Assembly (NCBI RefSeq): GCF_036013645.1
Contig: NZ_CP107869.1
Location: forward strand, 1,116,001-1,180,000
Reading direction: 5' to 3'
Origin: Streptomyces sp. NBC_00490
GTDB taxonomy: Bacteria > Actinomycetota > Actinomycetes > Streptomycetales > Streptomycetaceae
DNA length: 64,000 nt
Position 1 is the stretch's first letter; every line of letters begins with the position of its first letter. The position numbers were made by a program, and so were the translations under genes. Below the pieces are notes generated by a model. That model was given only the letters and a program-made list of their open reading frames with translations, was not told the origin of the DNA and did not search any database. Positions 1,719 to 19,067 of this stretch are shown here, one piece after another.

Positions 1719-2441
1719 TCACTTCAGGTGCCGGCCGAAGAACCGGTTCGCGTCCTCCCCCTCGAACCAGGGGGTGCCGGTGTGTCCGCCCATGTTGGCG
1801 TGCAGCGTCTTCTCCTTGGTGCCGAAGGCCTCGAACAGGTCCAGGGCGCGCTGCCGCGGGTTGCCTTCGTCGTCCCACTGCAGCAGGAGCAGCAGCGGAA
1901 TGGTGACCTGGCGGGCCTCCTCGCGCTGGGCGCGGGGCACGAACCCCCCGGCGAAGAAGCCGGCGACCGTGATGCGCGGCTCGACCACCGCCAGCCGGAT
2001 ACCGAGGGCCATCCACCCGGAGTACCCGACCGGGCCGCCGATCTCGGGCAGCGCCAGGAGGGCGTCCAGAGTCGTCCGCCATTCCGGGACCGCGTTCTCG
2101 ACCAGCGGGCCGACGAGGGATTCGAAGATCTCGTCGACCGGCTCGCCGGCCTGCATCGCCCGGCGCAGGTCGGCGCGGGTCTGCTCGCCTGCGGCAGAAC
2201 GGGGCCGGTCGCCGCACTCGGCGGCGTCGATGGTGGCCACCGCGTAGCCGTTCGCCGCGGTGTGCCGGCCCCGGGCCACCAGCCGGTCCTGGCTCCTGGG
2301 CAGCCCGTTGTTGTGGGCCATGAGGATCAGCGGGACCGGTTCGGTGGATTCGGGGGTCCACAGGGTGCCGGGGATCTCGCCGAGGGTGAATTCGCGTTCG
2401 AGGACGCCTTCGTCGAGGCGCTGCTCGGAAGTGAATCGCAT
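1719..2441 (-). CDS. Alpha/beta hydrolase (dienelactone hydrolase-like)
   Basis: 240 aa with an alpha/beta hydrolase layout: nucleophile elbow GYSGW (Ser), an acid in the WDDEGNPRQ segment and a C-terminal His in GGHTGTPW. The oxyanion strand reads LILMAHNNG, where most esterases have HG. ATG at 2441 has an AAAGG-type ribosome site 7 nt upstream. It lies 191 nt downstream of the last dehydrogenase of the cyclitol operon, on the same strand, so it could be a distal member or a separate gene. The substrate is unknown; ester hydrolysis is the family expectation. Confidence 0.75.
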   Translation of the reverse strand: MRFTSEQRLDEGVLEREFTLGEIPGTLWTPESTEPVPLILMAHNNGLPRSQDRLVARGRHTAANGYAVATIDAAECGDRPRSAAGEQTRADLRRAMQAGEPVDEIFESLVGPLVENAVPEWRTTLDALLALPEIGGPVGYSGWMALGIRLAVVEPRITVAGFFAGGFVPRAQREEARQVTIPLLLLLQWDDEGNPRQRALDLFEAFGTKEKTLHANMGGHTGTPWFEGEDANRFFGRHLK

Positions 2442-2632: not shown

Positions 2633-3751
2633 TCATCCGGCTCCCTGGTGCGTGGCGTCGTTCCCCAGGTCGATGACGAGGCGGATGACGAGTTCGTCGT
2701 CGACGAGGCGGGTGCGGTCGCCGATGATCCGGTTGAGGTGGTCGACGCCGGGCTCCAGGGTCAGCACGTGGGTGAGGAGCGGGTCGGCGGTGGTGTCGGT
2801 GCGCAGGGCTTCGGCGGCGGCGAGGAGTTGGGGGTTGGTGACGCCGCGGTTGCCGCTGAGGGTGACGCGCAGGCCGGGGCGGGTGAAGGTGGTGGTGGCC
2901 GGGGGCCAGGGGCCGCCGGTGTTGGCGCGGCGGACGCCGTCGAGGTCGACGCCGGGCAGCAAGGGGGTGGTGGCGCGGGGCGGGACGCCGCCGAGGGGGT
3001 GGATGGCGACCAGGCGCTCGCCGAGGGCGGTGACGGCGGCTTCGACGGCGGGGACGGTTCCGCCGCGGTGGGTGGTGACGAGGAGCGCGGCGGTGCCGGT
3101 GACGTGCCGGTCGAGGGGGTCGGAGTCGAGGACGCTCACCGCGTGAGGGGCGTGGGTCTGGGTCCATTTGAGGCCGGCCTCGGTGCGGTGGACCACGACG
3201 ACACGGACCGTGGGGAAGAGGAAGCGGGGCGCGAGCAGGGCGGCGAGGTTGCCGGTCAGGCCGTCGCCGTGGACGACGAGGGTGTCGGGGGCCGAGGTGG
3301 CCAGGCACGCGAGGGCGTAGCGGACGACGGCGAACGGTTCGACGAGGGTGGCGCGGGCCGCGGGGAGGTCTTCGGGGAGGTGGGAGACGAGGCCGCCGCG
3401 GACGGCTGAGGCGCCGATGAGGACGCGTTGCTGGAAGAGGCCCGGCACGTTGTGGCCGAGGAGGAAGGACGGGTCGCCGGGGTGGGTGGGGTTGACGAGC
3501 ACCCGGTCGCCGGGGGCGAAGCCGACGGTGCCGCGTCCGGCGGCGACGACTCGGGCGGCACCCTCGTGGCCGACGACGGGTGAGGGGTCGTCGCGGTCGC
3601 CGCGCAGGATCTGGATGTCGGTGCCGCACAGGCTCACGTGCTCGGGTGCGAGCAGGAGTTCGCCCTCGCCGGGGTCCGGGGTGGGGACCTCTTCGATACG
3701 GCAGGTGGTGCCGTGGCGGACGATCGCGCGGTGGGTGGCCGTGGCCGGCAT
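2633..3751 (-). CDS. Zinc-type medium-chain dehydrogenase lacking the structural-zinc lobe
   Basis: 372 aa from ATG 3751; the longer open frame upstream is antisense noise over the kinase gene. The N-terminal GroES-like domain has the catalytic zinc ligands LCGTD (Cys) and VVGHEG (His-Glu), but the four-Cys structural zinc loop of classical alcohol dehydrogenases is absent. The Rossmann half has a variant nucleotide loop, VVHGDGLTGNLAALL. Glucose dehydrogenase-like enzymes share this architecture. It is the last tight member of the cyclitol operon, 41 nt after the ROK kinase, so the likely role is NAD(P)-dependent oxidation or reduction of a cyclitol hydroxyl or ketone (inference). Confidence 0.75.
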   Translation of the reverse strand: MPATATHRAIVRHGTTCRIEEVPTPDPGEGELLLAPEHVSLCGTDIQILRGDRDDPSPVVGHEGAARVVAAGRGTVGFAPGDRVLVNPTHPGDPSFLLGHNVPGLFQQRVLIGASAVRGGLVSHLPEDLPAARATLVEPFAVVRYALACLATSAPDTLVVHGDGLTGNLAALLAPRFLFPTVRVVVVHRTEAGLKWTQTHAPHAVSVLDSDPLDRHVTGTAALLVTTHRGGTVPAVEAAVTALGERLVAIHPLGGVPPRATTPLLPGVDLDGVRRANTGGPWPPATTTFTRPGLRVTLSGNRGVTNPQLLAAAEALRTDTTADPLLTHVLTLEPGVDHLNRIIGDRTRLVDDELVIRLVIDLGNDATHQGAG

Positions 3752-3792
3752 GGGGTCCTTCCGGAGGGGCTGGCGGTTCAACAGGGCTGGTC

Positions 3793-4800
3793 TCAGTGTT
3801 TGGTGACGGTCAGTGCGCCGTGGGAGAGCGCGACGGCGCCCGCCAGGGGATCCACCTCGCCGGGGCGGCACAGCCGCAGAACCTCTCCCGGCCGGTCGGT
3901 GTCCCGGTCGGCGTAGCTCCGCACTTCGCTGACCTGGCGGACCAGTTCGGCGCGGTAGGCCTCGCCGAGGCCTTCCGCGTAGCCGCCGCCGATGCCGATG
4001 AGGTCGATACGGGGATCCAGGCAGCGCAGCATGCGCACGATTTCGGCGACGGGTTCCACGACGGTGGTGAGCAGCCGGAGGGCGGCGGGGTCGCCGCTCC
4101 GCAGCCGGGCGGTGAGGGTGTCGCGGATGTCCTCGGGACGTTCGATGCCGAGCGCGGCGGCGACGTGCGGCAGGGCGGGTCCGGCGGCCAGGGCGGCGAC
4201 ATGACCGGTGCCGCCGCAGGGGCAGGTCAGCGCGCGGACGGCCGCGGGTGCGCTGGAGACGGCCGGGAGGTGGCCGACCTCGCCCTGCATGCCGTGGGCG
4301 TCGACCGGGACGCGGTGTTCGGTGAGGTCGGCGGTGCGCAGGGCGATGCCGCTGCTCACCGTGAGGTAGACGGCCCGCCGGTGGTGGGGGCGGGCGAACC
4401 GCTCGACGAAGCTCGCGAGGCCGGCCGTGACGTCGTTGAACAGGTGCCAGCTGACGTCCGGGCGGCGGGCCATGAGCAGCGCGCGGAGCGGGACCGGCCG
4501 GTCCGGGCCACCGCCCCACAGCGGGCCCGAGCCGTGCAGCACGCCCCGCTCCTCGTCCATGGCGGCCCCGCAGGACATCGCCACCCGCGCGTCCGCCGGC
4601 ACCATGTCGGCCAGGGTCTCGATCAGCTGCTCGAGAAGTGCCGCCGGGCCCTCGCCGGGCCGGTTGAGGATGCTGGGCGCGGGGAGCCGTACGGTCTCGC
4701 CGGACCCGGTCCGGATCCGCAGCCAGGTCCCTCCGAGGTCGACGGCGACCTGCGTACGTACCTGGTCCTCGCGGTCCTGGGTGACGGTCCGCGTGCTCAC
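3793..4800 (-). CDS. ROK-family sugar/cyclitol kinase
   Basis: 335 aa from a GTG overlapping the preceding stop (GTGA). It has an N-terminal phosphate loop DLGGTWLRI, a substrate loop with the general-base Asp in LFNDVTAG, and a zinc region GEVGHL followed by CPCGGTGH. In most ROK kinases the last motif is CxCGxxGC, so the third Cys is His here. ROK kinases include glucokinases and the C7-cyclitol kinases ValC (validamycin) and AcbM (acarbose). Given the valiolone-type cyclase in the same operon, phosphorylation of a C7 cyclitol at O-7 or O-1 is the best guess. It is translationally coupled to the HAD phosphatase. Confidence 0.82.
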   Translation of the reverse strand: MSTRTVTQDREDQVRTQVAVDLGGTWLRIRTGSGETVRLPAPSILNRPGEGPAALLEQLIETLADMVPADARVAMSCGAAMDEERGVLHGSGPLWGGGPDRPVPLRALLMARRPDVSWHLFNDVTAGLASFVERFARPHHRRAVYLTVSSGIALRTADLTEHRVPVDAHGMQGEVGHLPAVSSAPAAVRALTCPCGGTGHVAALAAGPALPHVAAALGIERPEDIRDTLTARLRSGDPAALRLLTTVVEPVAEIVRMLRCLDPRIDLIGIGGGYAEGLGEAYRAELVRQVSEVRSYADRDTDRPGEVLRLCRPGEVDPLAGAVALSHGALTVTKH

Positions 4801-5492
4801 AGCCGTATCCCCTCTGCCGGTTCGGCGTGTGCCCGCGCCTGCCGGATCTCCAGGTGGATACGGCCGTCGCTCACGCGGGCGGTGACGGCGGTGAGGTCGT
4901 CGACGCGGTACGGGGCAGGTTCGGCGAGGGGGGCGGCGACGGCGACGGGGGTGCCGCCGGAGCGGCGGGCCGCGAGCAGTCCGGGGGCGGAGTCCTCGAA
5001 GAGGAGGCAGTCGGTGATGTCCACGTCGAGGAGGCGGGCGGCGGCACGGAAGCCCTCGGGGTCGGGTTTGCCGGCTCGGACGTCGTCGGCGCAGACGGCG
5101 ACGGCGGGCAGCGGCAGTCCGGCGGCGGTGAGGCGGCGTTCGGTCATGGTGCGGGAGGCGGAGGTGACGACGGCCCAGGTGCGCGCGGGCAGGGAGGTGA
5201 GCAGCCGTCGCGCGCCCGGGATCTCGGTGACGGTGTCGGCGGTGGCCTCCTCGCGTTCCCGGATCCAGGCGACTTCGGCGCTGACGGTGGACAGGTTGGC
5301 CGCGGGGAGGAGCCCGGCGACGATGTCGGGGGCGGTGCGGCCGGGCAGCGCGGCGAGGACGGTGGCGGCGTCGAGGCGGTGGCGGTTGGCGAACGCCCGC
5401 CAGACACGGTCGATGGAGTCGGCGGAGTCGACCAGGGTGCCGTCCATGTCGAAGAGCAGGGCGCGGGCCGTCACGGCGCGCGGGGCGGTCAT
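4797..5492 (-). CDS. HAD-superfamily phosphatase/phosphoglucomutase-like hydrolase
   Basis: 231 aa from ATG 5492, overlapping the F420 oxidoreductase stop by 4 nt. HAD motif I is LLFDMDGTLVDS (nucleophile and acid Asp), motif II is the Ser/Thr in VVTSASR, motif III is the Lys in RAGKPDPEGF, and motif IV is LFEDSAPGLLAA. The small helical cap after motif I fits the beta-phosphoglucomutase/CbbY-like subfamily, so the enzyme could remove phosphate from a cyclitol phosphate or move it. HAD hydrolases accompany kinases in characterised C7-cyclitol pathways, which fits its place between the ROK kinase and the oxidoreductases. Confidence 0.82.
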   Translation of the reverse strand: MTAPRAVTARALLFDMDGTLVDSADSIDRVWRAFANRHRLDAATVLAALPGRTAPDIVAGLLPAANLSTVSAEVAWIREREEATADTVTEIPGARRLLTSLPARTWAVVTSASRTMTERRLTAAGLPLPAVAVCADDVRAGKPDPEGFRAAARLLDVDITDCLLFEDSAPGLLAARRSGGTPVAVAAPLAEPAPYRVDDLTAVTARVSDGRIHLEIRQARAHAEPAEGIRL

Positions 5493-6346
5493 CCGATCTC
5501 CAGGGTGTGTGCGGCGAGCCTGATCAGTTCCAGGTCTTCCTTCCAGTGCCTGCGCAGACGCTGGTCGCCGGGGTCGGTGTCGAGGATCACGTGGTCGGCG
5601 CCGAGGTCGCGCAGGAAGGCGATGTCGGCGCGGATCTGGTCGGGGGTGCCATAGCCGAGCGGGCGGGAGTCCGGGTCGGCGGGGGTGGTGGTGGGCAGGA
5701 AGAAGATCCTCGGGGCGAACTGCTTGCCGTCCGCGAGGGCCCCGGCGGCGTGGGCGCACAGCTGCCGGCTGGGGTGGAGCGGGTGCCAGGCGGTGCCGAC
5801 GCGGTTGACGCGTTCCAGGGCGCGTGGTCCGTTGCCGCCGATCCACAGCGGCGGGTGCGGGTCCTGTACGGGCCGCGGTGCGGTGTGTACCCGGTGGCCG
5901 CGGTGGGTGACGGTGTCGGAGGTCCATGCCGCGACCAGGACGTCCAGGGTGTGGTCGGTGAGGGCGCCGCGTCTGCGGAAGTCCACACCGAGGACGTCGA
6001 AGGCGCGCGGGGCCCAGCCGACGCCGACACCGACGACGAGGCGGCCGCCGCTGAGTCCGTCGATGGTGGCGGTGGCCCGGGCGAGCGCGATCGGGTGGCG
6101 GTGGGAGGCGATGAGGACACCCGCGCCGAGACGGATGGTCTCGGTCTGCCCGGCCAGCCAGGAGAGGGTGGCGAGGCTCTCGTGGAACGGGGCGGGCGAG
6201 CGCCGGTGGGCGTCGTCGGTGAGGGCGAGGTGGTCGGAGACCAGGACGGTGTCGAAGCCCAGCTGTTCGGCCTCGCGGGTCCAGGCGAGCATGCCCTCGG
6301 GCGTCATCTGGGGGCCGAAGTTGGGCAGGTTGATGCCGAATTTCAT
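5489..6346 (-). CDS. LLM-class (luciferase-like) F420-dependent oxidoreductase
   Basis: 285 aa from ATG 6346, overlapping the VOC gene stop by 4 nt. The start reads MKFGINLPNFGPQMTPEG, the usual first strand of the bacterial luciferase-like TIM barrel. Further family segments are LGFDTVLVSDHLALTD, TIRLGAGVL, the GRLVVGVGVGWAPRAF helix-strand and the PPLWIGGNG strand near the cofactor pocket. Family members use coenzyme F420 or FMN; actinobacterial ones of this length are often F420-dependent. The role in the cyclitol pathway would be a hydride transfer to or from a carbonyl or double bond, but the substrate is not evident. Confidence 0.82.
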   Translation of the reverse strand: MKFGINLPNFGPQMTPEGMLAWTREAEQLGFDTVLVSDHLALTDDAHRRSPAPFHESLATLSWLAGQTETIRLGAGVLIASHRHPIALARATATIDGLSGGRLVVGVGVGWAPRAFDVLGVDFRRRGALTDHTLDVLVAAWTSDTVTHRGHRVHTAPRPVQDPHPPLWIGGNGPRALERVNRVGTAWHPLHPSRQLCAHAAGALADGKQFAPRIFFLPTTTPADPDSRPLGYGTPDQIRADIAFLRDLGADHVILDTDPGDQRLRRHWKEDLELIRLAAHTLEIG

Positions 6347-7209
6347 GGGGTCACCGGCTCGGGGAGGGTGAGTCCGAAGGCGGCGTGGTGCGCCGTGGGG
6401 GCCGGCTGGGGCTGGGCGTGGAGTTCGAGCAGGTTGCCGCCGAGGCGGTCCACGGAGCGCGGCGGTCGCCGGTCGGGGATGCCGTGCTCGAAGAGTTCGA
6501 GGTTGAGGGCGTCGTCGACGACGACCATGGCCATGGCCGAGGTGCCCTCGACGTCGAGGTCGAACTGGCGGCGCATGAAGGCCCGGTCGGCGGCGATCTC
6601 GGTGCGCAGGACGACCCGTGCCCGGTGGTGGGTGACGAGGTGGTCGATGGTGGCGTCGAGGCTCTGGACGCTGTAGCCGGTGTGGTCCAGGCCGAGCAGG
6701 GTGGGCAGGGGCGCGTCGTCGGCCGGCCGCTGGTCGTGGTGGAGGCGTTCGGCGGTGGTGTCGGCGTACCCGGGGACGTCGGGCCACTGCTGCAGTTCGA
6801 AGAGGGTGCCCCAGGGGGAACGGAAGTAGATCCAGCGGTTTCCGCGGATCGGGCCCTCGGGGATGGTGATGATGTCGCCCAGGACGTCGACTCCCGGGAG
6901 CTGTTCCAGGTGGGCGACGGCCGCCTCGATGTCGCCGACGCGCAGGCAGAGGTGGTTGGTGCCGATGTCGACCAGCCGGGGCGGGGTGTCGTGGGTGCTG
7001 TCGGGCGCGGTCGGTACGAGGCGTACCTCGATGCCGGGAGAGAACGAGACGACGCCGGCGCCGCCGTCCCGGTCCACGGCCGAGGGCCCGGCCAGTTCCG
7101 CGAGGAAGGCGGTGGCCTCCTCGACGTCCGGTACCGCCACCGTGATCCGGTGGGCCGGCGGGCGGGTGCCGGGGGGTGAGGTCAGGGGGGTGTCTTGGGC
7201 CGTGGTCAT
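6343..7209 (-). CDS. Two-module VOC (glyoxalase-fold) protein, candidate cyclitol epimerase
   Basis: 288 aa from ATG 7209 with an AAGGAA site. Two vicinal-oxygen-chelate modules are visible: module 1 (about 20-142) with metal ligands His86 (TNHLCLRVG) and Glu138 (LFELQQW), and module 2 (about 170-265) with His176 (LDHTGYSV) and Glu238 (NLELFEH). 2-epi-5-epi-valiolone epimerases such as ValD and CetB belong to the VOC superfamily and work directly after the cyclase. The shared operon makes epimerisation the leading guess, but VOC proteins also include dioxygenases and resistance proteins. A 100-nt gap separates it from the gene upstream, the widest break inside the operon. Confidence 0.72.
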   Translation of the reverse strand: MTTAQDTPLTSPPGTRPPAHRITVAVPDVEEATAFLAELAGPSAVDRDGGAGVVSFSPGIEVRLVPTAPDSTHDTPPRLVDIGTNHLCLRVGDIEAAVAHLEQLPGVDVLGDIITIPEGPIRGNRWIYFRSPWGTLFELQQWPDVPGYADTTAERLHHDQRPADDAPLPTLLGLDHTGYSVQSLDATIDHLVTHHRARVVLRTEIAADRAFMRRQFDLDVEGTSAMAMVVVDDALNLELFEHGIPDRRPPRSVDRLGGNLLELHAQPQPAPTAHHAAFGLTLPEPVTP

Positions 7210-7309
7210 GTGGGGGTTCCTTCGGGGAGCGGGGTCGGGGCCGGGGGTAAGCGTCTGCCGGTGGCCTTGGCCGGGCTCCGGACGGTGAGCGGCCTCGGGT
7301 GCGGGTGGG

Positions 7310-8209
7310 TCACGGCAGGAGCAGGACCTTGCCGCGCAGGCCGCCCGCGCTGAAGTCGTGGTGGGCGCGGGCGGCGTCGGCGAGCGGGTAGCGGCGGCCG
7401 GTCGGCACCGTGAGGCGGCCTGCGGCGACCAGGTCGCTCAGGGTCTGGAGCTGGTCGCCGTTCTCGTCGACGTAGCTCTTGCCGGGAGTGATGCCGCGCT
7501 CGGGGGCGGGCTGGGGGTTGTCGTCGATGGAGACGAACTGGCCTGCGTCGGCGACCGCGCGGATCGCGGCGGCCACGCCCGCGGTGTCGACGACAGCCGT
7601 GTGGGTGGCGTCGGGGAGATCCTCGGTCCGGGTGTGCACGGTGCCGACGCCGAGGTCTCGCAGGGACGCGATGTCGCCGGTCCGGGCCAGGGCGTCGACC
7701 GGGTGTCCGGCGGCGAGCAACAGCTGGACGGCGATCCGGCCGACCGCGCCGGCGGCGCCGGTGACGAGTACGGGTGCGCCGGCCGGCAGCGTGAGCTTGG
7801 CCAGGGTCTGGACGGCGGTCAGTCCGGCGAGCGGGAGGGCGGCGGCCTCCTGCAGCGGAAGGCCGGCCGGGGCGTGGGCGAAGAGGCGTGCGTCGGCGGT
7901 GACCTGTTCGGCATAGGTGCCGTAGCGGTGGGCCGGCTGGGCGACCATGCCGATGACCTGCTCGCCCACGGTGAACCGGGTGACCTCGCTGCCGGTCTCG
8001 GTGACGACGCCGGAGACGTCCCAGCCGGGTACGGACGGGTAGGTGAGGTTCAGGGTGAGGAAGCCGGAGCGGGTCTTGAGGTCGACCGGGTTCACGGCGG
8101 CCGCGGTGACGGTGACGCGGATGTCCTGCGGTCCGACGGGCAGTTCGGGTACCTCGTCGAAGGCCAGGACGTCGGGGTCGCCGGTGCGGTGGAAGGTGAT
8201 GGCTTTCAT
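7310..8209 (-). CDS. Quinone oxidoreductase-like NADP-dependent MDR enzyme (zinc-free)
   Basis: 299 aa from ATG 8209, overlapping the SDR stop by 4 nt (ATGA). It has a typical QOR/zeta-crystallin layout: GroES domain with TAAAVNPVDLKTRSG and PGWDVSGVV, AALPLAGLTAVQTL, then the nucleotide loop VLVTGAAGAVGRIAVQL. There are no zinc-binding Cys residues. Such enzymes reduce quinones, enones or activated double bonds with NADPH. Within the cyclitol operon it may reduce an unsaturated cyclohexenone-type intermediate (inference). Confidence 0.82.
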   Translation of the reverse strand: MKAITFHRTGDPDVLAFDEVPELPVGPQDIRVTVTAAAVNPVDLKTRSGFLTLNLTYPSVPGWDVSGVVTETGSEVTRFTVGEQVIGMVAQPAHRYGTYAEQVTADARLFAHAPAGLPLQEAAALPLAGLTAVQTLAKLTLPAGAPVLVTGAAGAVGRIAVQLLLAAGHPVDALARTGDIASLRDLGVGTVHTRTEDLPDATHTAVVDTAGVAAAIRAVADAGQFVSIDDNPQPAPERGITPGKSYVDENGDQLQTLSDLVAAGRLTVPTGRRYPLADAARAHHDFSAGGLRGKVLLLP

Positions 8210-9021
8210 GCCGGCGAGTTCTCCTTCGGAGCGACGGTGGTGAAGGCGTGGCGGGCGTTGGCCTCCGCCGCGGTCAGCGCGAGTCCGCCGTCGGCGAGGA
8301 CCGAGGTGCCGGTGAGGTAGCCGGAGCGGGGTCCGGCGAGATAGGCGATGAGCGAGGCGATCTCCTCGGCTCCGGCCGGGCGGCCGAGCGGGATGTCGGG
8401 GCGGGAGATCGACCGGTAGGTGGCCTCGTCGTGGACGCCGTTCATGGCGGTGGCGGTCTCACCGGGGGCGACGGAGTTGACCCTGATGCCGTACTGGCCG
8501 AACTCCAGGGCGAGAACCTTGGTGATCATGCCCAGGGCGGCCTTGCTGGCGCAGTAGAGCGCGCCGCCGGTGATGGGGACGGTCTCGTGGACGGAGGTGA
8601 CATTGACGATGCTGCCCCGGACGCCCCCACGGATCATGTGGTGGCCCACCGCGGAGGCGAGTGTCATGGGAGCGAGCGTGTTGATCGCGAACACCTCGTC
8701 GGCCCGCTTCAGTTCCAGGGCGTCGGCGGCGCTGCGGTCGTTGATGCCGGCGTTGTTGACCAGGCAGTCGATACGTCCGGCCCGCTCGACGGCGGCCATG
8801 CAGCTGTCGACGGCGGCTTCCGGGTCGCGCAGATCGGCCCGGACGGGAACGCACTCGGCGCCGGTGGTGCGCCGCAGTTCCTCGGCGACCTGGCGGATCC
8901 GGTCCTCGCCGGTGGCGTAGCCGAGAAGCAGCCGGTGGCCGGGGCCGGCGAGTGCCCGGGCGGTGGCCCGGCCGATGCCGCTGCTGGCGCCGGTGATCAG
9001 TGTGGTGTGCAGGTCAGGCAA
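8206..9021 (-). CDS. Short-chain dehydrogenase/reductase (SDR)
   Basis: 271 aa. Classical SDR: cofactor motif LITGASSGIGRATA near residues 8-21, the LVNNAGIN strand, catalytic Ser in NVTSVHE, and YxxxK in LYCASKAALG. Its C-terminal IAYLAGPRSGYLTGTSVLADGG is standard for the FabG-like group. The start is a TTG at 9021 that overlaps the preceding dehydrogenase by 8 nt; no internal ATG leaves the Rossmann motif intact. It is one of five oxidoreductases in the operon and probably acts on a hydroxyl or keto group of the cyclitol. Confidence 0.85.
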   Translation of the reverse strand: MPDLHTTLITGASSGIGRATARALAGPGHRLLLGYATGEDRIRQVAEELRRTTGAECVPVRADLRDPEAAVDSCMAAVERAGRIDCLVNNAGINDRSAADALELKRADEVFAINTLAPMTLASAVGHHMIRGGVRGSIVNVTSVHETVPITGGALYCASKAALGMITKVLALEFGQYGIRVNSVAPGETATAMNGVHDEATYRSISRPDIPLGRPAGAEEIASLIAYLAGPRSGYLTGTSVLADGGLALTAAEANARHAFTTVAPKENSPA

Positions 9022-10006
9022 CGCTCAGCACCACCTTGGGCCGGGTCCGGCCGTGCTGGAGCACGTCGAAGGCGCGGGCGACCTCGGCGAGCGGTATCAC
9101 CTGGTCGACGAGACCGGCGGCGAGTTCGTCGACGAGTGCGACGGCGCGGGCGTAGTGGTCGACGCCGTGCCGGACTCCGGCGATGCGCAGGCCGTCCAGG
9201 GTGATCCGGGCGGCGTCGACGGTCTCGGCCTGTGCGGGGACGCCGACCAGCAGGCACAGGCCGCCGGGGCGCAGCCGGTCGAGCGCGGCGTTGAGGGTGC
9301 CGGGGGCGCCCGAGCACTCCAGGACGAGGTCGTAGCCGGTGGGGGCGTCGTCGGTGCGGGTGACCCGGTCGCGGTAGCTGCCGGCCGGAAGGTGGCCGAC
9401 GGTGCCGGGTTCGGCGATGTCGACGGTCACCGGGTACCGGGCGAGGACGGCGGCTGCGAGGCTGCCCATGGTGCCCGCGCCGATGACCATGATCTGGTCC
9501 CCGGGCCGCGGGTCGGCCGCGTGGACCGCCTCCAGGACGGTGACCAGGGGTTCGACCAGGACGTGTTCCGGGCGCGGTTGCTCCGTGCCGGGGCCGAAGG
9601 GGACCAGGGCGTGGCGGGGCATGACCAGGTACTCGGCGGCGGCTCCGGTCCAGCCGTACAGGCCGACTTCACGCAGCTCGGTGCACAGGTTGCGGTGGCC
9701 GGCGGCGCAGGAGCGGCAGGACTGGCAGGGGATCATGGTGGAGCCGGTGACCACCTCGCCGTGGCGCAGTCCGGTCACGCCGGGGCCGAACTCCTCGACG
9801 GTGCCGGCCCATTCGTGGCCGAACCGGTGCGGGAAGGTGGCGCGTCCGTCGGCGAGGTAGGGGGAGGTTCCGTGCAGGAGCTCCAGGTCACTGCCGCACA
9901 GGCCGACGTAGGCGATCCTGACCAGGACCTCGCCGGGTCCGGCGGCCGGTCGGTCGGTCTCCACCAGCGTCGCGGTGTGCGGTTTGTCGATGACGGCGGC
10001 CCGCAT
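9014..10006 (-). CDS. Zinc-containing alcohol/polyol dehydrogenase
   Basis: 330 aa from ATG 10006; a TTG one codon upstream gives a 4-nt overlap with the exporter stop and is an alternative. Both zinc sites are present: catalytic Cys and His-Glu (GLCGSDLELL, GHEWAG) and the structural four-Cys lobe PCQSCRSCAAGHRNLC. The nucleotide loop is VIGAGTMGSLAA. It resembles sorbitol/threonine dehydrogenases, which fits oxidation of a polyol ring carbon. It differs from the operon-distal dehydrogenase by keeping the structural zinc site. Confidence 0.85.
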   Translation of the reverse strand: MRAAVIDKPHTATLVETDRPAAGPGEVLVRIAYVGLCGSDLELLHGTSPYLADGRATFPHRFGHEWAGTVEEFGPGVTGLRHGEVVTGSTMIPCQSCRSCAAGHRNLCTELREVGLYGWTGAAAEYLVMPRHALVPFGPGTEQPRPEHVLVEPLVTVLEAVHAADPRPGDQIMVIGAGTMGSLAAAVLARYPVTVDIAEPGTVGHLPAGSYRDRVTRTDDAPTGYDLVLECSGAPGTLNAALDRLRPGGLCLLVGVPAQAETVDAARITLDGLRIAGVRHGVDHYARAVALVDELAAGLVDQVIPLAEVARAFDVLQHGRTRPKVVLSVA

Positions 10007-11214
10007 CAACGGCCCTCACCTGCTGCCAAGGTGCGGCGGGTGCCCAGAACGAGGGCGAGGACGGCTGCCAGGGCGAGACCGGCGCCGACCGCGGGCAGCG
10101 TGGCCAGCGAGGCGCCCAGGGAGAGGGTGGCCGAGCCGATCCAGGCGCCGGCGGCGTTGGCGAGCTGGAAGCCCGCGATGTTGACGGTGGCCGCGAGGTT
10201 GGGGGCCTCACTCGCCGCGCTGATCAGTTTGGAGGCCAGCGGCGGGATGATCGAGAAGCCGGCGGCGCCGAGGACGAAGAGCCAGGGTGCGGTGAACCAG
10301 GTGCTCGAGCCGAAGAGTGCCAGCAGGCCGAGGGCGACGGTGAGCGCGCCGAGCGCTACGAGCAGGGTGCGGTCGATGGAGCGGTCGGCGAAGTGTCCGC
10401 CGAGCTGGTTGCCGACCACCGAGCCGATGCCGAAGACGAAGAGGAGCAGGGTGACGTGGCCGGACGAGAAGCCGGTGTAGTCGCGGAGGTAGGGCGCGAT
10501 GTAGGTGAAGACGACGAACAGGGCGGCCTGGCTGAGCGCGGTCAGGGTGAGCGCGGCCCACACCGCGGGGCGGGTGAAGACGGTGAGTTCGGCGGAGATC
10601 GATCCGGCCGGGCGGGCGGGGGCGCGCCGGGTGACGGCCACCAGGCCCACGGTGACCAGGGTCTGGAAGACGGCGACCACCACGAAGGAGGTCCGCCAGC
10701 CGAACTCGCCGCCGATCAGGGTGCCGAGCGGTACGCCGAGCACGGTGGCCAGGTTCAGGCCGAGGGAGACCCGGGCGATCACCCGGCCCTGGAACTCCGG
10801 CGGCACCAGCGAGGTGGCGAGGACCAGGCACAGGGCGAAGAAGGTGGCGTGCGGCAGGGCGGTGATGATCCGGAAGACGACCAGGAGCGCGAAGCTGTTC
10901 GCCAGTGCCGTACCGAGGGTGCCGATGACGAAGACCGCCATGGAGCCGATGATCAGGGCGGTGCGCGGCACGCGGGTGGTGACGATGGTGAGCAGCGGAC
11001 CGCCGATCATCACGGTGACCGCGTAGACGGTCACCAGGAGTCCGGCGGTGGCGTCGGACACGTTGACGTCGCCCGCGATGTCCGGGAGGACGCCGGCCAC
11101 GAGGTACTCGACGGTGCCGACGCCGAAGACGGCGAGCAGCATCCACAGGACGGCGGCGTTGGTGCCCGTCGCTGGTGCGGGCGTTGGCGTCTCGGTGCTG
11201 GTGGTGGCGGTCAA
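10006..11214 (-). CDS. MFS transporter (DHA1 family exporter)
   Basis: 402 aa from a TTG at 11214, which overlaps the KAS III-like stop (TTGA) and has GGGGAG 6 nt upstream; this decides the start against a much longer open frame. About 12 hydrophobic helices. The first cytoplasmic loop region reads VNVSDATAGLLVTVYAVTV and is followed by a TTRVPRTALIIGS-type loop, as in the AraJ/chloramphenicol-resistance DHA1 exporters. Its place between biosynthetic genes, with overlaps on both sides, suggests it exports the cyclitol product and gives self-protection (inference). Confidence 0.85.
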   Translation of the reverse strand: MTATTSTETPTPAPATGTNAAVLWMLLAVFGVGTVEYLVAGVLPDIAGDVNVSDATAGLLVTVYAVTVMIGGPLLTIVTTRVPRTALIIGSMAVFVIGTLGTALANSFALLVVFRIITALPHATFFALCLVLATSLVPPEFQGRVIARVSLGLNLATVLGVPLGTLIGGEFGWRTSFVVVAVFQTLVTVGLVAVTRRAPARPAGSISAELTVFTRPAVWAALTLTALSQAALFVVFTYIAPYLRDYTGFSSGHVTLLLFVFGIGSVVGNQLGGHFADRSIDRTLLVALGALTVALGLLALFGSSTWFTAPWLFVLGAAGFSIIPPLASKLISAASEAPNLAATVNIAGFQLANAAGAWIGSATLSLGASLATLPAVGAGLALAAVLALVLGTRRTLAAGEGR

Positions 11215-12275
11215 CGGACGCTCCCCTTCTTCTCGTTCGTGTCGTTGGTGGGTGCGGGCGCGCCGGTGTACTCCAGGACGGCGCAGCCCCAGGTGAATCC
11301 GACGCCTATGCCGGTGAGCAGCAGCCGGTCGCCCGGGTTGAGGGCACCGGAGCGGCGCAGCAGGTCGAGGCCTACGACCGGGTCGGCGGCGCCGGTGTGC
11401 CCGATCTCCCAGCCGCGTGCGGCCAGCGTCTGGTCGGCGTCGATCTTCAGCGGGCCGAAGCACTGCTTGCGCAGCAGGATCCGGCCGAAGTTCGGCACCA
11501 ACCAGTGGGCGATGTCGGAGTGGGCGGTGTCGGCGTCGGCGAGCGCGGTCTCGGCGCAGCGTGACAGGGCGGCGGTGTTGCGGGTCCAAAACTCCTCGGT
11601 GCTGCGGGTCTCGGCGAATGCGGCGACCCGCTGGCGCAGGTCGATGGGGGCGCCGGAGCCGTAGTAGGGCATCGCCATCGAATCGTTTCCGCGGTGCATC
11701 CGCTCGAGCAGCGGGTCGCTGACCACGGAGGTGGACAGGATCCGGAAGGGGCCGCCGTCGTGGCCGAGGACCAGGGCGCCCGCGCCGTCGCCGTAGACCA
11801 GTCCGCTGTCGGAGGCCCAGCGGTCGAAGAGCGGCAGCTGCCAGGCGTCGGAGGCGGTGACCATGCCCTTGCCGGAGCCCGCGCACCAGCGTCCGACGAG
11901 TTCCATGCCGACGACGGCGCCCGCGCAGGCGGTGCGTATCTCGATCGGTATGCATTCCTCTATGCCGAGCTCGCTCTGCAGATAGGCGCCGCAGTTCCAG
12001 CCCTCCAGGCCGTTGTGCAGCACCACCGCATGGACCAGGACATCGATGTCGGCGGGGTCGGTCCCGGCGTCCGCGAGGGCGGCGTGTCCGGCGGCCGCCG
12101 CCATCTCGGGGGCGCTCTCGCCGCGTTCGGGGCGGGCCACGGCTGCCGACACCTGTCCGGTCTTGCGGTGTTCGACCTGGCTGTACCGTCCCGCGGCCAC
12201 CATCTCGGCGGCGAACTCACGTTCCTCGGGCAGATAGGAGCCGAAGCCCTCGACGTAGAGGCTCTCCCACTTCAC
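11211..12275 (-). CDS. KAS III-like (FabH-fold) acyltransferase with altered catalytic residues
   Basis: 354 aa from a GTG overlapping the cyclase stop by 4 nt. Thiolase-fold landmarks of ketoacyl synthase III are clear: nucleophile Cys117 in RTACAGAVVGME, YGDGAGALVL and the C-terminal GIGVGFTWGCAVLE. At the usual catalytic His motif (PHQAN) the sequence reads LVPNFGRILL with Asn262, and at the usual Asn motif (NTSAAS) it reads GHTGAADP with His293. Such loss of the Cys-His-Asn triad is seen in KAS III homologues that transfer acyl groups to oxygen or nitrogen instead of condensing, such as CerJ. I infer that it esterifies the cyclitol or loads an acyl unit, rather than initiating fatty acids. 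Confidence 0.75.
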   Translation of the reverse strand: MKWESLYVEGFGSYLPEEREFAAEMVAAGRYSQVEHRKTGQVSAAVARPERGESAPEMAAAAGHAALADAGTDPADIDVLVHAVVLHNGLEGWNCGAYLQSELGIEECIPIEIRTACAGAVVGMELVGRWCAGSGKGMVTASDAWQLPLFDRWASDSGLVYGDGAGALVLGHDGGPFRILSTSVVSDPLLERMHRGNDSMAMPYYGSGAPIDLRQRVAAFAETRSTEEFWTRNTAALSRCAETALADADTAHSDIAHWLVPNFGRILLRKQCFGPLKIDADQTLAARGWEIGHTGAADPVVGLDLLRRSGALNPGDRLLLTGIGVGFTWGCAVLEYTGAPAPTNDTNEKKGSVR

Positions 12276-13522
12276 GCTGCCTCACCGGCCCCGACGAGTC
12301 CGGCCTCGGAGGCGAAGTTCTGCCCCGTTCGCCGTCGTGCGGTGTCGAGTTCCTTGAGCGCGGTGTCCAGTTCCTCGGGGGTGACGTCGTTGACGAACCG
12401 GTGGTGGCCGATGCCGACCGGAAGCGGCAGCCGCTGCTGCCCGTCGCGGTGGCGCACCGTGTCGGCGAGTGCGCCGTCCAGGATTCCCGGCCGGGCCAGC
12501 ACCTCGGTCCACAGCGGCAGTCGCAGCCGGTCCATCAGCGCCAGTACGCGCTCGGACTGGTGCTCGGTGACATCGCCGCGCATCCGCCCCATCACGGTGG
12601 TGAGCGCCATGTCGACGGCGACCGCCTCACCGTGCAGCAGCTCCGGCAGCGCCTCCATCTCGATGGTGGGGCTGAAGGTGTGCCCGTAGTCGACGCACCG
12701 TTCCAGGCACTGTTCCCACAGATTGGGCTGGAGTTCTTCCAGCATCAGGTGGATGGCCTCGGAGACGACCCGGCGGGCCGCCGTCTCCAGGGCGGGGGTG
12801 CTGCCCTGGAAGCGGTCCTCGATCAGCAGCGGCCCGAAGTCCTCGAGGAGATCGAAGAGTTCCGCCGACTTGATGAGTGCCACCTTGAGGATCTCCGCCA
12901 GCCCGTTGGAGAGGTGACGTGCGTCGAGGGTGCTCAGGAAGGAGCGGTCCACGAAGGTCGCCACGGCCGGTGCGTAGGTGCCGAGCCGGTTCTTGCCCTG
13001 CCCGTAGTTGACCCCGGTCTTCACGCCGACCCCGGCGTCGACCAGGCCCACCAGGGTGGTGGGTATCCGTATGTAGGGGGTGCCGCGCCGGTACAGGCTG
13101 GCGGCGAGTCCGACGACGTCGAGGAGGACGCCGCCGCCGATGGCGATCACCGGTTCGCGTCTGCGGTCGATGCCGAAGTCGTTCATCGCGTCGACCACGT
13201 CCGTCACCAGGTTCCACCGCTTGACACTCTCGTCCGCGCGTACCGGAAGGAGGGTGACCGCGATGCCGTGATGGTCGAAGTAGCGGGTGATGCGCTCCCC
13301 GTGGAGTTCCTGGACGGTGGAGTCGATCACGACGAGACGCCGGTCGCCGGGTCGCAGCGCCGCGTCCGCGCAACCCGTTAACAGCAGGGTGCTGTCGGTG
13401 TCGAACAGGCCGGACGCCTCGACGACGTGGTACCGGACCTGTTTGACGGCCTCCACGGTCCAGGTGGGGGAGGCGGAGTGACGGCGGGTCAGGCCGTCGG
13501 TGTAAGACGCACTGTTGTGCAT
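12272..13522 (-). CDS. Sugar phosphate cyclase, 2-epi-5-epi-valiolone synthase type
   Basis: 416 aa. It belongs to the dehydroquinate-synthase-like superfamily that cyclises sedoheptulose 7-phosphate. Motifs: NAD loop IGGGVLLDVVGLAAS (GGG 129-131, Asp135), TTLVGLVDAGVGVKTGVN (Lys168), the NRLGTY segment, NGLAEILKVALIK (Glu210, Lys213), DYGHTFSPTIEM (His281) and LLHGEAVAVDMA (His297). The HTFSP and GVKTGVN wording matches the EEVS branch seen in validamycin and acarbose clusters better than DHQ synthase; the closely related 2-epi-valiolone synthases cannot be excluded by eye. ATG 13522 has a GAGGA site. It is the first gene of the operon. Confidence 0.87.
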   Translation of the reverse strand: MHNSASYTDGLTRRHSASPTWTVEAVKQVRYHVVEASGLFDTDSTLLLTGCADAALRPGDRRLVVIDSTVQELHGERITRYFDHHGIAVTLLPVRADESVKRWNLVTDVVDAMNDFGIDRRREPVIAIGGGVLLDVVGLAASLYRRGTPYIRIPTTLVGLVDAGVGVKTGVNYGQGKNRLGTYAPAVATFVDRSFLSTLDARHLSNGLAEILKVALIKSAELFDLLEDFGPLLIEDRFQGSTPALETAARRVVSEAIHLMLEELQPNLWEQCLERCVDYGHTFSPTIEMEALPELLHGEAVAVDMALTTVMGRMRGDVTEHQSERVLALMDRLRLPLWTEVLARPGILDGALADTVRHRDGQQRLPLPVGIGHHRFVNDVTPEELDTALKELDTARRRTGQNFASEAGLVGAGEAA

Positions 13523-13769
13523 GTGGAGTCCTCACGCTGTGCAGGCATGGTGCGTCGTGGGCGGCGACCACTTTGTCGCCGCGCCTCGCTGCGCATGAAG
13601 GGTGCGGCGAGGAACCACGCCTGTTCGGCGTGCCGGTTCCCCCACCGGCTCGGCGAGACTATCATTCGTTTATCGATCGCTACATGAATAATGGATCACA
13701 CCGGCGTGAAGCCGCGCTTCGGCCCGCGCCCGCGAGAGAGCACGCTCACCGACGACGTGGGAGCACCTG
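13523..13769. promoter_or_regulatory. Divergent promoter region of the cyclitol operon and its TetR gene
   Basis: 247 nt between the cyclase and the TetR gene. The cyclase leader contains a perfect 8-bp stem (13561-13568 with 13575-13582, 6-nt loop) that could act as an attenuator or mRNA stabiliser. Nearer the middle, an AT-rich patch around 13660-13695 with TTTATCGATCG and ATGAATAATGG stands out from the GC-rich surroundings and is the likely core promoter and TetR operator zone. No single operator is obvious. Confidence 0.45.
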
Positions 13770-14381
13770 ATGGCAGGCGTACGCGGCCAGGGCCGTAAGT
13801 TCGATCTCGACGACGCCCTGGAGAAGGCCATGCTCGCCTTCTGGCGGCATGGTTACGACGGCGCCTCCGTCGCCACCCTCACCCGGGAGATGGGGATCAA
13901 CCCCCCCAGCCTGTATGCGGCGTTCGGCAGCAAGGAGGGCCTCTTCTTCGCCGCCGTCGAGTACTACAACAACGGCAGAGGCAGCTTCATGCAGCGCGCC
14001 TTCGACGAGGAGGGCCACTCCCCCGCCCTGATCCGGCGCCTGCTGTACGAGGCGGCCGACACATACACCCTCACCGACGGACCCGGCGGCTGTCTGATCA
14101 TCGGCTCCGCCACCCGCGTCTCCGACGCCGCGCAGGAAGTCGCCGACCGCCTCCGCGATCTCCGCAACGCCAACATCGACCGGCTGGAGGACCACATCAG
14201 GGCCGACATCGACGCGGGCACCCTCCCGGCCCACACCGACGCCCGCGCGGTCGCCGAGTTCACCGGGGTGGTCGTTCAGGGCATGTCGCACCGGGCCCGG
14301 GACGGCGCGACGACCGAGGCGCTACGGGCGGTAGCGGGGACGGCGTGGAAGTCGGTCCGGATGCTGCTGGGTGAGACGTAA
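13770..14381 (+). CDS. TetR/AcrR-family transcriptional regulator
   Basis: 203 aa. N-terminal TetR helix-turn-helix: ALEKAMLAFWRHGYDGASV, then REMGINPPSLYAAFGSKEGLF, the usual recognition helix with the Tyr-x-x-Phe-x-x-Lys signature. The C-terminal ligand domain resembles the AefR-like group (TDGPGGCLIIGSA). ATG 13770 follows a GGGAG site. Divergent from the cyclitol operon, so it most likely represses that operon and itself and responds to a pathway product or exporter substrate (inference from position). Confidence 0.88.
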   Translation: MAGVRGQGRKFDLDDALEKAMLAFWRHGYDGASVATLTREMGINPPSLYAAFGSKEGLFFAAVEYYNNGRGSFMQRAFDEEGHSPALIRRLLYEAADTYTLTDGPGGCLIIGSATRVSDAAQEVADRLRDLRNANIDRLEDHIRADIDAGTLPAHTDARAVAEFTGVVVQGMSHRARDGATTEALRAVAGTAWKSVRMLLGET

Positions 14382-15804: not shown

Positions 15805-16887
15805 TCAGCGCACCGCGGGTGGCGCCGTGCTCTCCCGCACTATCAGACGCGTCGGCACAAGCGTCGTGCCGTGCGTCGCGTCGTCGTGGCGCATCTTCCG
15901 CAGGACCGCCTGGACGCAGAGGCGGCCGACCTCCGCGAAGTCCTGATGGACCGTCGTGAGGGGCGGCAGGAAGGACGACGCCTCGGCGATGTCGTCGAAG
16001 CCGATGACGCTGACGTCCTCGGGGACGCGCCGGCCGCGTTCATGCAGGGCACGCAGCAGACCCAGGGCCATCTGGTCGTTGGCCGTGAAGACCGCCGTGC
16101 AGTCCTCCTGCGCGGCCAGCTCCAGGCCCGCCCGGTAGCCCGACTCCGCCGACCAGTCACCCCGCACCAGGGGCGGAATCCGCCGGCCCGCGTCGCTGAG
16201 CGTGGCCTGCCAGGCGTCGGTACGGCGCTGGGCGGCGTAGGAGCCCTCGGGGCCCGCGAGGTGCCAGACCGTGTCGTGGCCGAGCCCGAGCAGATGCTCG
16301 ACGGCCATGCGCGTGCCGCCGACCTGGTCGGTGTCGACGACCGTGTACCGCTCCCCCGCGTCGGAGTCGGCGACGACCACCTGGACACGGGGCGGCATGT
16401 TGATGGTGGCCGCGTCCAGGAGGTGCACCTCCATGATGACGATCACCGCGTCGACGGCGAGTTCCCCGAGCCGGGAGAAGGCGCCGCGCACCTCGTCCTG
16501 GGTGGGGACGGCGACCGGCAGCAGGGTCACCGCGTACCCCTCGGCCGCCGCGGCGGTGGCGATCGCCTCCAGGGTGCGGACGTTGCCGGTCGTGGAGAGA
16601 GTGAAGGTGATGACGCCCAGGGTGCGGAACTCGCCGCGCTTCAGGGCGCGGGCGGCGCTGTTGGGACGGTAGCCCAGCTCTCGCATAGCGGCGAGGACTT
16701 GGCGGCGCGTCTCCTCGTTGACACCCGCGTAACCGTTGGACACGCGCGAGACGGTCTGCGAGGACACCCCGGCCAGTTGGGCCACGTCGGCCATCGAGAC
16801 CGAGGGGCGGACCGCTCCGGGTGCCCGCCGGCGGCCGGTCACCGCAGGTGAGGCCGCCTGCGTCGGCGTGTCGTGCGTCGCGTCCAT
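15805..16887 (-). CDS. LacI-family repressor of the galactan locus
   Basis: 360 aa. The N-terminal LacI helix-turn-helix, about residues 30-85, reads VSMADVAQLAGVSSQTVSRV followed by the YRPNSAARALK hinge helix. The periplasmic-binding-protein fold includes DTDQVGGTRMAVEHLLGLGH, AVFTANDQMALGLLRAL and DVSVIGFDDIAEASSFLPPLTTVHQD, as in the GalR/LacI group. ATG 16887 has a GGGGG site. It diverges from the importer genes, and two near-identical palindromes lie between, so it likely represses both itself and the transport/hydrolase operon until a galacto-oligosaccharide binds (inference). Confidence 0.92.
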   Translation of the reverse strand: MDATHDTPTQAASPAVTGRRRAPGAVRPSVSMADVAQLAGVSSQTVSRVSNGYAGVNEETRRQVLAAMRELGYRPNSAARALKRGEFRTLGVITFTLSTTGNVRTLEAIATAAAAEGYAVTLLPVAVPTQDEVRGAFSRLGELAVDAVIVIMEVHLLDAATINMPPRVQVVVADSDAGERYTVVDTDQVGGTRMAVEHLLGLGHDTVWHLAGPEGSYAAQRRTDAWQATLSDAGRRIPPLVRGDWSAESGYRAGLELAAQEDCTAVFTANDQMALGLLRALHERGRRVPEDVSVIGFDDIAEASSFLPPLTTVHQDFAEVGRLCVQAVLRKMRHDDATHGTTLVPTRLIVRESTAPPAVR

Positions 16888-16985
16888 TTTCTACCCCCTG
16901 CCTCTCCTTGCATCGCTTTGATCACGATCCTCCAGGGAGACCCTTGACCTGTGTCAGCGGAGGCGTGTAGACATGCCGCCATCGG

Positions 16986-17047: not shown

Positions 17048-17114
17048 CTCGTCCGCGCCACACGGGGAAATCTGCGGGGCGCGGGTTCCATGAGTGGACG
17101 AGCGAGGAACGATC

Positions 17115-18041: not shown

Positions 18042-18045
18042 CCCG

Positions 18046-18972: not shown

Positions 18973-19067
18973 CGAGGCCGGCGCCCGCCCCAAGCCCCCC
19001 AATTGAGCACCACCGGCACCACCCCCACCCTCACCTGTCCCACCCACGCAGAAGTGGAAGCACCTCC

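What the first reader, a model, noticed from the sequence alone, without database searches (positions are those of the whole stretch)
2633..14381. Uncharacterised-looking C7-cyclitol (valiolone-type) biosynthetic cluster
A sugar-phosphate cyclase with EEVS-type motifs heads an 11-gene minus-strand run coupled by 1-8-nt overlaps, with a ROK kinase, HAD phosphatase, VOC protein and five redox enzymes, MFS exporter and divergent TetR. This gene set parallels early validamycin/acarbose/cetoniacytone steps, but no aminotransferase, glycosyltransferase or nucleotidyltransferase is present. That points to a non-nitrogenous, possibly acylated cyclitol.
Basis: partly seen in the sequence, partly recalled or inferred. 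Interest (0 to 1): 0.85.

Follow-up and report, generated by a model that had tools for sequence, protein, structure and literature searches.

The report
Acylated carbasugar operon in actinobacteria
A block of eleven co-directional genes in a soil Streptomyces, also found in Nocardia, probably makes a small nitrogen-free, sugar-like ring with an acid group attached, a type of natural product (like COTC and the gabosines) for which I found no published gene cluster.

Summary
Window 2633-13522 is an eleven-gene minus-strand operon with a divergent TetR gene (13770-14381). The cyclase is EEVS-like: it matches ValA far better than EVS or DHQ synthases. No aminotransferase, nucleotidyltransferase or glycosyltransferase is in the operon. 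The 'KAS III' belongs by sequence, fold and Cys-His-Asp triad with CerJ and ChlB3, not FabH, which supports 'acylated'. The same twelve genes in the same order occur in other Streptomyces and three Nocardia genomes, with a shared 26-bp near-palindrome in the tetR-cyclase gap. The regulator's nearest solved relative is CifR, an epoxide-responsive repressor. The operon looks like a mosaic: kinase, phosphatase and AcbL-like gene resemble an acarbose-like module; its ADH and SDR resemble other cyclase loci that carry a KSIII-like gene, three of which add a FabH/FabG/enoyl-CoA-hydratase set (candidate COTC clusters). Best reading: SH7P is cyclised, phosphorylated, epimerised, dehydrated to a valienone-type enone, dephosphorylated, O-acylated and exported. 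Product, acyl donor and every activity are inferred. No characterised cluster matched in open-access papers; MIBiG and antiSMASH were not available.

The parts
12272..13522 (-). Sedoheptulose 7-phosphate cyclase, EEVS type (416 aa)
   Evidence: PDB best match ValA 4p53 E 7.9e-122; tree; Asp278/His358 at what I recall as ValA positions 281/360
11211..12275 (-). KSIII-like acyltransferase, proposed O-acyltransferase (354 aa), Cys117-His293-Asp298
   Evidence: PDB ChlB3/DpsC/CerJ best; triad in 24 of 24 window-type rows, two of them identical to each other; fold hits DpsC, CerJ, ChlB3, NatS before FabH
10006..11214 (-). MFS exporter (402 aa)
   Evidence: PF07690; Cmx/CmrA-like, below cut-off
9014..10009 (-). 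Zinc medium-chain dehydrogenase ADHa (331 aa)
   Evidence: PF08240/PF16912; five zinc-site residues conserved in 6 of 6 orthologues
8206..9021 (-). SDR oxidoreductase (271 aa)
   Evidence: PF13561; Ser143-Tyr156-Lys160 conserved in 6 of 6
7310..8209 (-). Quinone/enone-reductase-like protein QOR (299 aa)
   Evidence: PIG3-like, below cut-off; PF08240/PF13602
6343..7209 (-). Tandem VOC protein, proposed C2-epimerase (288 aa)
   Evidence: Glyoxalase Pfam; 42 relatives at E<=1e-3; His86, Glu138, His176, Glu238 invariant in the 22 rows aligned (window and 21 of the 42); fold
5489..6346 (-). LLM-class oxidoreductase, F420-dependent by family name (285 aa)
   Evidence: TIGR03619 190.2 bits, over cut-off 166.9; PF00296
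4797..5492 (-). HAD phosphatase (231 aa)
   Evidence: PF00702/PF13419; TIGR01509 over cut-off, PRK11587 sugar phosphatase best but below cut-off; catalytic residues conserved in 6 of 6
3793..4800 (-). ROK-family kinase, proposed cyclitol 7-kinase (335 aa)
   Evidence: PF00480; residues conserved in 5 of 5 orthologues that reach it
2633..3751 (-). ADHb, zinc-dehydrogenase-like, proposed AcbL-type dehydratase (372 aa)
   Evidence: PF08240 only; AcbL-like by gene-set parity and PMC10717218, inferred; no AcbL sequence compared
13770..14381 (+). TetR repressor of CifR type, Cys108
   Evidence: CifR 6nsn E 2.7e-33; Cys conserved in 14 of 14 aligned rows, two of them second copies of the same genomes
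13664..13689 (-). Proposed operator, near-palindrome ATTCATGTAGCGATCGATAAACGAAT
   Evidence: Core shared by Streptomyces and Nocardia; single site in the genome, matched on both strands; 0 in 100 shuffles

Best explanation
A biosynthetic operon for a nitrogen-free, O-acylated C7-carbasugar of the gabosine/COTC kind. Proposed order: (1) the cyclase turns sedoheptulose 7-phosphate into 2-epi-5-epi-valiolone; (2) the ROK kinase phosphorylates C7; (3) the VOC protein epimerises C2, where the acarbose-like loci have a TIM-barrel protein; (4) ADHb, AcbL-like, dehydrates the 7-phosphate to a valienone-type enone; (5) ADHa, SDR, the LLM enzyme and QOR set the ring redox state; (6) the HAD phosphatase frees the C7 hydroxyl; (7) the KSIII-like enzyme loads an acyl group from a CoA or ACP thioester onto Cys117 and passes it to an oxygen of the cyclitol, probably O7; (8) the MFS protein exports the ester. 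The CifR-like repressor binds the 26-bp site between tetR and the cyclase and lets go when its Cys108 meets the electrophilic product. Shown here: gene content, order, homology class, conserved catalytic residues, conservation across genera, the shared operator-like site. Inferred: every activity, the order of steps, the acyl donor, the site of acylation, the inducer.
For: EEVS match, tree and residue pair. KSIII triad and fold of acyltransferases. In acarbose, a ROK kinase acts on C7, AcbL gives valienone 7-phosphate and AcbJ removes the C7 phosphate (PMC9200736 and PMC7081202 passages). An AcbL/SalM-like gene in a predicted C7-cyclitol cluster of S. lincolnensis, a species reported to make carbasugars (PMC10717218 passages). 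Same twelve genes in same order in S. canus, S. caeruleatus, S. muensis (up to its contig end in HAD) and three Nocardia. KSIII-like genes beside such cyclases in further lineages, three of them with a FabH/FabG/enoyl-CoA-hydratase set. CifR-like regulator and shared site.
Against: No gene in the operon supplies a dedicated acyl donor. The window KSIII clade is separate from the KSIII-like genes of the crotonyl-type loci, and those carry Ser, not Cys, at the nucleophile position in 5 of 5, so the acyl group cannot be carried over from COTC. KSIII-like relatives are common: 110 of 392 Streptomyces have one at E<=1e-40, so presence near a cyclase is not in itself rare; the case rests on the conserved operon. 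DpsC, the top fold hit, is a starter-unit enzyme, and PMC9573744 says the relatives other than CerJ do condensation. ADHb has only weak matches to characterised ADHs. Five redox enzymes are more than a simple valienone ester needs. The EVS reference falls inside the EEVS-like part of the tree on a long branch, so the tree alone does not separate EEVS from EVS.
Confidence: 0.6

Rival explanations
1. The product is a reduced, non-electrophilic acylated cyclitol (valiol/validatol-like ester): QOR and the LLM enzyme reduce the ring double bond, and the ester serves as a secreted or signalling molecule rather than a warhead.
For: Five redox enzymes including QOR and an LLM protein of an F420-dependent family are more than an enone needs.
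Against: The CifR-like regulator with its conserved Cys suggests an electrophile; QOR-like genes lie in 20 of 53 cyclase loci of several types, which fits protection or tailoring equally.
Confidence: 0.17
2. The KSIII-like protein does not esterify the cyclitol but builds or primes an acyl chain (DpsC-like), or makes a C-C bond, and the cyclitol product is free.
For: DpsC is the top fold hit, and several relatives are reported to condense.
Against: No ACP, KS/CLF or PKS gene is among the eleven operon genes. The window-type triad is Cys-His-Asp as in CerJ and ChlB3, while DpsC has Ser at the Cys position.
Confidence: 0.15
3. The product is an aminocyclitol or pseudosaccharide whose aminotransferase or glycosyltransferase lies elsewhere in the genome.
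For: Most characterised EEVS pathways lead to such products (recalled). The rest of the genome was not searched for such genes.
Against: Neither is among the operon genes, and the block conserved in three Nocardia holds the same twelve genes only. By eye I saw no flanking gene in common between L006 and L152; the simple gene caller missed most of L153.
Confidence: 0.06

Closest known systems
Early acarbose pathway (AcbC, AcbM, AcbO, AcbL, AcbN, AcbJ)
   Same: EEVS-type cyclase, ROK kinase, zinc-dehydrogenase-like AcbL candidate, SDR and C7 phosphatase candidate
   Different: No nucleotidyltransferase, aminotransferase, glycosyl- or pseudoglycosyltransferase in the operon; a VOC protein where the acarbose-like loci seen here have a TIM-barrel (PF01261, tested on L007) protein; a KSIII-like acyltransferase is added
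COTC / gabosine / rancinamycin-type keto-carbasugars of Streptomyces
   Same: Nitrogen-free C7 ring, in COTC with a crotonyl ester on the exocyclic oxygen (PMC2635666 passages and reference titles); a KSIII-like acyltransferase could make such an ester
   Different: No gene cluster for these products was found in my searches; the window has no crotonyl set, which loci L021, L063, L057 do have
CerJ, ChlB3, DpsC, NatS (KSIII-like enzymes)
   Same: Fold and, for CerJ and ChlB3, the Cys-His-Asp triad
   Different: 30-34% identity in the fold alignments; acceptor here is proposed to be a cyclitol; the window type forms its own clade among the 98 rows compared, which did not include these four by name
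CifR regulatory circuit
   Same: Divergent TetR gene, conserved Cys, candidate palindromic site in the shared gap
   Different: Lies beside a biosynthetic operon, not an epoxide hydrolase; no family scan named an epoxide hydrolase in the operon; binding and response to epoxide or enone untested

Membership tests
[quoted passage not shown]
   E 7.9e-122 against 2e-77 and 3.2e-41
[quoted passage not shown]
   Asp278/His358; the EVS reference has Ala/Thr there
[quoted passage not shown]
   DHQS outside on a very long branch; EVS_5tpr falls inside on a branch of 4.55
[quoted passage not shown]
   needs an enzyme assay
KSIII-like acyltransferase (CerJ/ChlB3 type) | Cys-His-Asp triad | tested here: met
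   24 of 24 window-type rows
KSIII-like acyltransferase (CerJ/ChlB3 type) | Fold nearer to CerJ/ChlB3/DpsC than to FabH | tested here: met
   E 1.7e-38 to 5.5e-34 for DpsC, CerJ, ChlB3, NatS; first FabH 1.1e-25
KSIII-like acyltransferase (CerJ/ChlB3 type) | Transfers an acyl group | not testable with these tools
   needs an assay
C7N-aminocyclitol / pseudosaccharide cluster (validamycin, acarbose) | Aminotransferase, nucleotidyltransferase and glycosyl- or pseudoglycosyltransferase in the cluster | tested here: not met
   none named among the eleven operon genes
COTC-type cluster | Genes for a crotonyl thioester beside EEVS and acyltransferase (my own criterion) | tested here: not met
   absent from the operon; present in L021, L063, L057 (Pfam on L021 only)
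CifR-type epoxide/electrophile-sensing repressor | Sequence kinship and conserved Cys | tested here: met
   6nsn E 2.7e-33; Cys108 in 14 of 14 rows
CifR-type epoxide/electrophile-sensing repressor | Released from DNA by an electrophile | not testable with these tools
   needs DNA-binding assays

The most novel reading that the evidence does not exclude
A family of covalent 'warhead' carbasugars shared by Streptomyces, Kitasatospora, Nocardia and Rhodococcus: an acyl-protected valienone-type enone, made through a small VOC epimerase family so far seen only in genera that carry such cyclases, and switched on by its own reaction with a CifR-like repressor's cysteine, so that product and inducer are the same electrophile.
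Probability: 0.25. Interest if true: 0.75.

Novelty: new variant of a known kind. Interest (0 to 1): 0.55.

Why it matters
Gabosines have been described since 1974 and COTC is cited as a glyoxalase I inhibitor and antitumour lead, but my searches (open-access papers only) found no gene cluster for them. The window operon, and even more the related loci with a FabH/FabG/enoyl-CoA-hydratase set, give concrete candidates that one heterologous expression would test. It also offers a KSIII-like acyltransferase with a proposed cyclitol acceptor, a small VOC family of unknown function, and a regulator that may sense the product covalently.

Tried and rejected
Rejected: DHQ synthase (NCBIfam aroB and PRK06203 models score below cut-off; PDB order). 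Rejected: FabH-type chain starter (triad and fold). Rejected: the ORF 1719-2441 as part of the operon; it was not found in the Nocardia loci at E 1e-8. Led nowhere: sigma-70 promoter and terminator scans (0 promoters; 1 terminator-like site against 2.2 expected). Led nowhere: the VOC fold search named the fold but no close function. A single origin for the KSIII-like genes beside cyclases is not supported: they fall in separate places on the KSIII tree, starred branches forcing at least 3 changes. Identity of the S. lincolnensis cluster with the class B loci could not be tested, as no sequence was reachable by name.

Limits and dropped rows: one scan of genome contigs, with the cyclase as query (18 loci). 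Genome searches were on samples: 392 Streptomyces, 394 of the class, 150 Nocardia. In the class sample 24 of 394 genomes have a KSIII-like match at E<=1e-40, none but the window's own over 40% identity. Co-location in Kitasatospora and Rhodococcus is inferred from equal longest-contig lengths (22 of the 120 listed KSIII hits, 26 of the 120 listed cyclase hits and 22 of the 42 VOC hits were typed in), not seen. In one search I dropped four loci as duplicates and so lost S. muensis altogether; one search repeats the count with it (53 of the 56 loci, the window included; three second copies dropped). The cyclase tree lacks S. caeruleatus, whose cyclase ORF is split, and two second copies. The KSIII tree uses a chosen part of the 120 listed hits, leaves out matches with stops or under 290 aa and six loci already present. 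The counts hold two loci each from genomes G049 and G335. Papers: search listings with abstract openings, found passages only for PMC9573744, PMC9200736, PMC7081202, PMC10717218, PMC8244358, PMC2635666, PMC9946207, PMC9108482 and PMC4426668, and the introduction of PMC7961443. Rancinamycins, the roles of ValD/CetB as VOC epimerases, the naming of 5tpr as an EVS and the ValA 281/360 pair are recalled.
Full report
What is there. The window lies at 1.116-1.180 Mb of contig C1 of a 10.8-Mb genome in two contigs; the nearest named relative of the cyclase in the genome scan is in Streptomyces canus V4I20, 99% identical. On the minus strand eleven genes run from 13522 down to 2633, with a TetR gene facing away at 13770-14381. 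Eight of ten junctions overlap by 4-8 nt; the QOR/VOC junction has a gap of 100 nt and ROK/ADHb of 41 nt. Beyond the TetR gene come a lipoprotein-like gene (by eye), a LacI regulator and what looks by eye like an ABC sugar transporter with glycosidase genes; on the other side an alpha/beta-hydrolase-like ORF and an AI-2E family transporter. These look unrelated.

Cyclase. The best solved match is ValA (4p53, E 7.9e-122), then 5tpr, which I know as a cyanobacterial EVS (2e-77), and a DHQS (3.2e-41). At the two positions that I recall as telling EEVS from EVS the window has Asp and His, as ValA does, while the EVS reference has Ala and Thr. In a 55-row tree the window protein forms a starred clade (99/98) with S. 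canus, S. muensis and Nocardia shimofusensis; its sister, with lower support (83/92), is a Tsukamurella pair. The EVS reference falls inside on a long branch, so the tree alone does not settle EEVS against EVS.

Acyltransferase. The protein next to the cyclase matches ChlB3, DpsC and CerJ first. ChlB3 uses Cys113-His296-Asp301, shared with CerJ (PMC9573744 passages). The window protein has Cys117-His293-Asp298, in 24 of 24 window-type rows (one search had the last two one position off). A model of mean pLDDT 91.6 matches DpsC, CerJ, ChlB3 and NatS at E 1.7e-38 to 5.5e-34; the first FabH comes at 1.1e-25. That is evidence for acyl transfer, though DpsC and, by that paper, the relatives other than CerJ condense. 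Such proteins are common: 110 of 392 Streptomyces have a match at E<=1e-40.

Conservation. The twelve genes stand in the same order in S. canus, in S. caeruleatus (cyclase ORF split) and, up to the end of its contig in HAD, in S. muensis. In Nocardia, 4 of 150 genomes have the KSIII-like protein at E<=1e-60; three have all twelve genes in order (L006, L152, L153) and one has a decayed remnant (L154). In a sample of 392 Streptomyces, 49 genomes have a cyclase match at E<=1e-60 and 3, the window's own included, have the KSIII-like protein at over 90% identity. In 394 genomes of the class none but the window's own exceeds 40% identity to it. dN/dS is 0.07-0.56 in the 46 of 48 comparisons that could be made. 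Protein searches add Kitasatospora and Rhodococcus members of the KSIII-like and VOC families; 11 of the first 22 KSIII-like hits share a longest-contig length with one of 26 cyclase hits compared, an indirect sign of co-location.

Regulation. The tetR-cyclase gap holds ATTCATGTAGCGATCGATAAACGAAT at 13664-13689, an imperfect palindrome: read on the other strand the core matches its own pattern with 3 mismatches. Streptomyces and Nocardia share the core while much of the gap differs. In the genome this is the only site within 3 mismatches, and 100 shuffles of the window never reach it. Of 58 fetched loci over 6 kb, eight match the degenerate pattern with no mismatch: five helped to make the pattern, one is the near-identical S. 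canus, two are second copies; they are six genomes in all. The other 50, the decayed Nocardia copy among them, have at least five mismatches. The TetR protein's best PDB match is CifR (2.7e-33). [quoted passage not shown] The Cys aligned with a CifR Cys that another CifR entry has as Ser is kept in 14 of 14 rows, five of them from another type of cyclase locus (L058-L061, L067).

Mosaic build. In five class B loci compared (Tsukamurella, Streptomyces, Kribbella) HAD is 42-51%, ROK 48-51% and ADHb 38-41% identical to the window, but ADHa only 33-37%, and the window SDR finds no match there at E 1e-8. In the other cyclase loci with a KSIII-like gene (L021, L063, L057, L054, L055) no HAD, ROK or ADHb match was found in the stretches held, some of which end early. 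In four of those five the ADHa is 39-48% and the SDR 47-52% alike; in L057 no ADHa was found and the SDR is 30%. Class B loci carry a membrane acyltransferase (PF01757) and mostly a TIM-barrel protein (PF01261) (Pfam tested on L007 only). KSIII-like genes occur at 10 of 53 cyclase loci, membrane acyltransferases at 22, either at 29.

Candidate COTC loci. L021 (Streptomyces sp. ISL-12), L063 and L057 place a cyclase, a KSIII-like acyltransferase (with Ser at the nucleophile position), a FabH-like KSIII, a FabG-like SDR and an enoyl-CoA hydratase close together (Pfam on L021; in L057 the FabH-like His motif was not found by my pattern). FabH, FabG and hydratase could yield a crotonyl thioester, the acyl group of COTC. 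This is outside the window, but it is the most directly testable by-product of the work. The KSIII-like genes of these three loci group together, apart from the window's (97/85), so acyltransferases of this fold were joined to such cyclases more than once.

VOC protein. Only 42 relatives at E<=1e-3 were found among 7447 candidates from 5.8 billion proteins; the named ones are from Streptomyces, Kitasatospora, Nocardia, Rhodococcus and Cryobacterium. His86, Glu138, His176 and Glu238 are invariant in the 22 rows aligned (window and 21 of the 42). The model (pLDDT 89.8) is a tandem VOC fold. I propose C2-epimerisation: 2-epi-5-epi-valiolone was isolated from a valD mutant of a validamycin producer (PMC7081202 passages), and I recall ValD and CetB as VOC epimerases. 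No direct comparison with ValD or CetB was possible.

Pathway and known systems. In acarbose, AcbM (ROK) phosphorylates C7, AcbO epimerises, AcbL dehydrates to valienone 7-phosphate and AcbJ removes the C7 phosphate (PMC9200736, PMC7081202 passages). An AcbL/SalM-like gene in a predicted C7-cyclitol cluster is reported for S. lincolnensis, a species that makes carbasugars (PMC10717218 passages). The window has candidates for these roles, with the VOC protein in place of AcbO, then an acyltransferase instead of nucleotidyl and glycosyl transfer. It is therefore not a member of the aminocyclitol or pseudosaccharide clusters, probably works like their first half, and most likely ends in an ester.

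Verdict. Real, conserved and coherent; a new variant of a known kind. I found no characterised cluster that matches, but those are open-access papers only. The product, donor and inducer are predictions.

Noticed in passing
L021 3331-13495 (Streptomyces sp. ISL-12); also L063, L057: EEVS-type cyclase with KSIII-like acyltransferase, FabH-like KSIII, FabG-like SDR and enoyl-CoA hydratase: a candidate COTC (crotonyl ester) cluster.
   Followed up: partly
L007-L016, L018, L020: A second, common type of EEVS locus (Streptomyces, Tsukamurella, Kribbella, Streptacidiphilus) with ROK, HAD, AcbL-like ADH, mostly a TIM-barrel protein, and a membrane acyltransferase nearby; perhaps the S. lincolnensis carbasugar type.
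   Followed up: partly
L084, L085: EEVS-like cyclase with a DegT-like aminotransferase and a relative of the window VOC protein, a possible cetoniacytone-like cluster (identification by eye).
   Followed up: no
L019 / L071 (S. caeruleatus): The cyclase ORF is split into two pieces in the assembly although the other operon genes are found; real loss or sequencing error.
   Followed up: no
L154 (a Nocardia genome): Decayed remnant of the operon: partial cyclase and KSIII-like gene, several genes not found.
   Followed up: no
window 15805-24673: LacI regulator, ABC sugar transporter with binding protein, a GH42-like and a GH30-like enzyme: looks like a galactan or galactoside use locus (transporter and glycosidase families judged by eye).
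   Followed up: no
window 1719-2441 (-): Alpha/beta-hydrolase-like ORF with no Pfam match and a weak UilS lactonase match, just downstream of ADHb, not found with the operon in Nocardia.
   Followed up: partly
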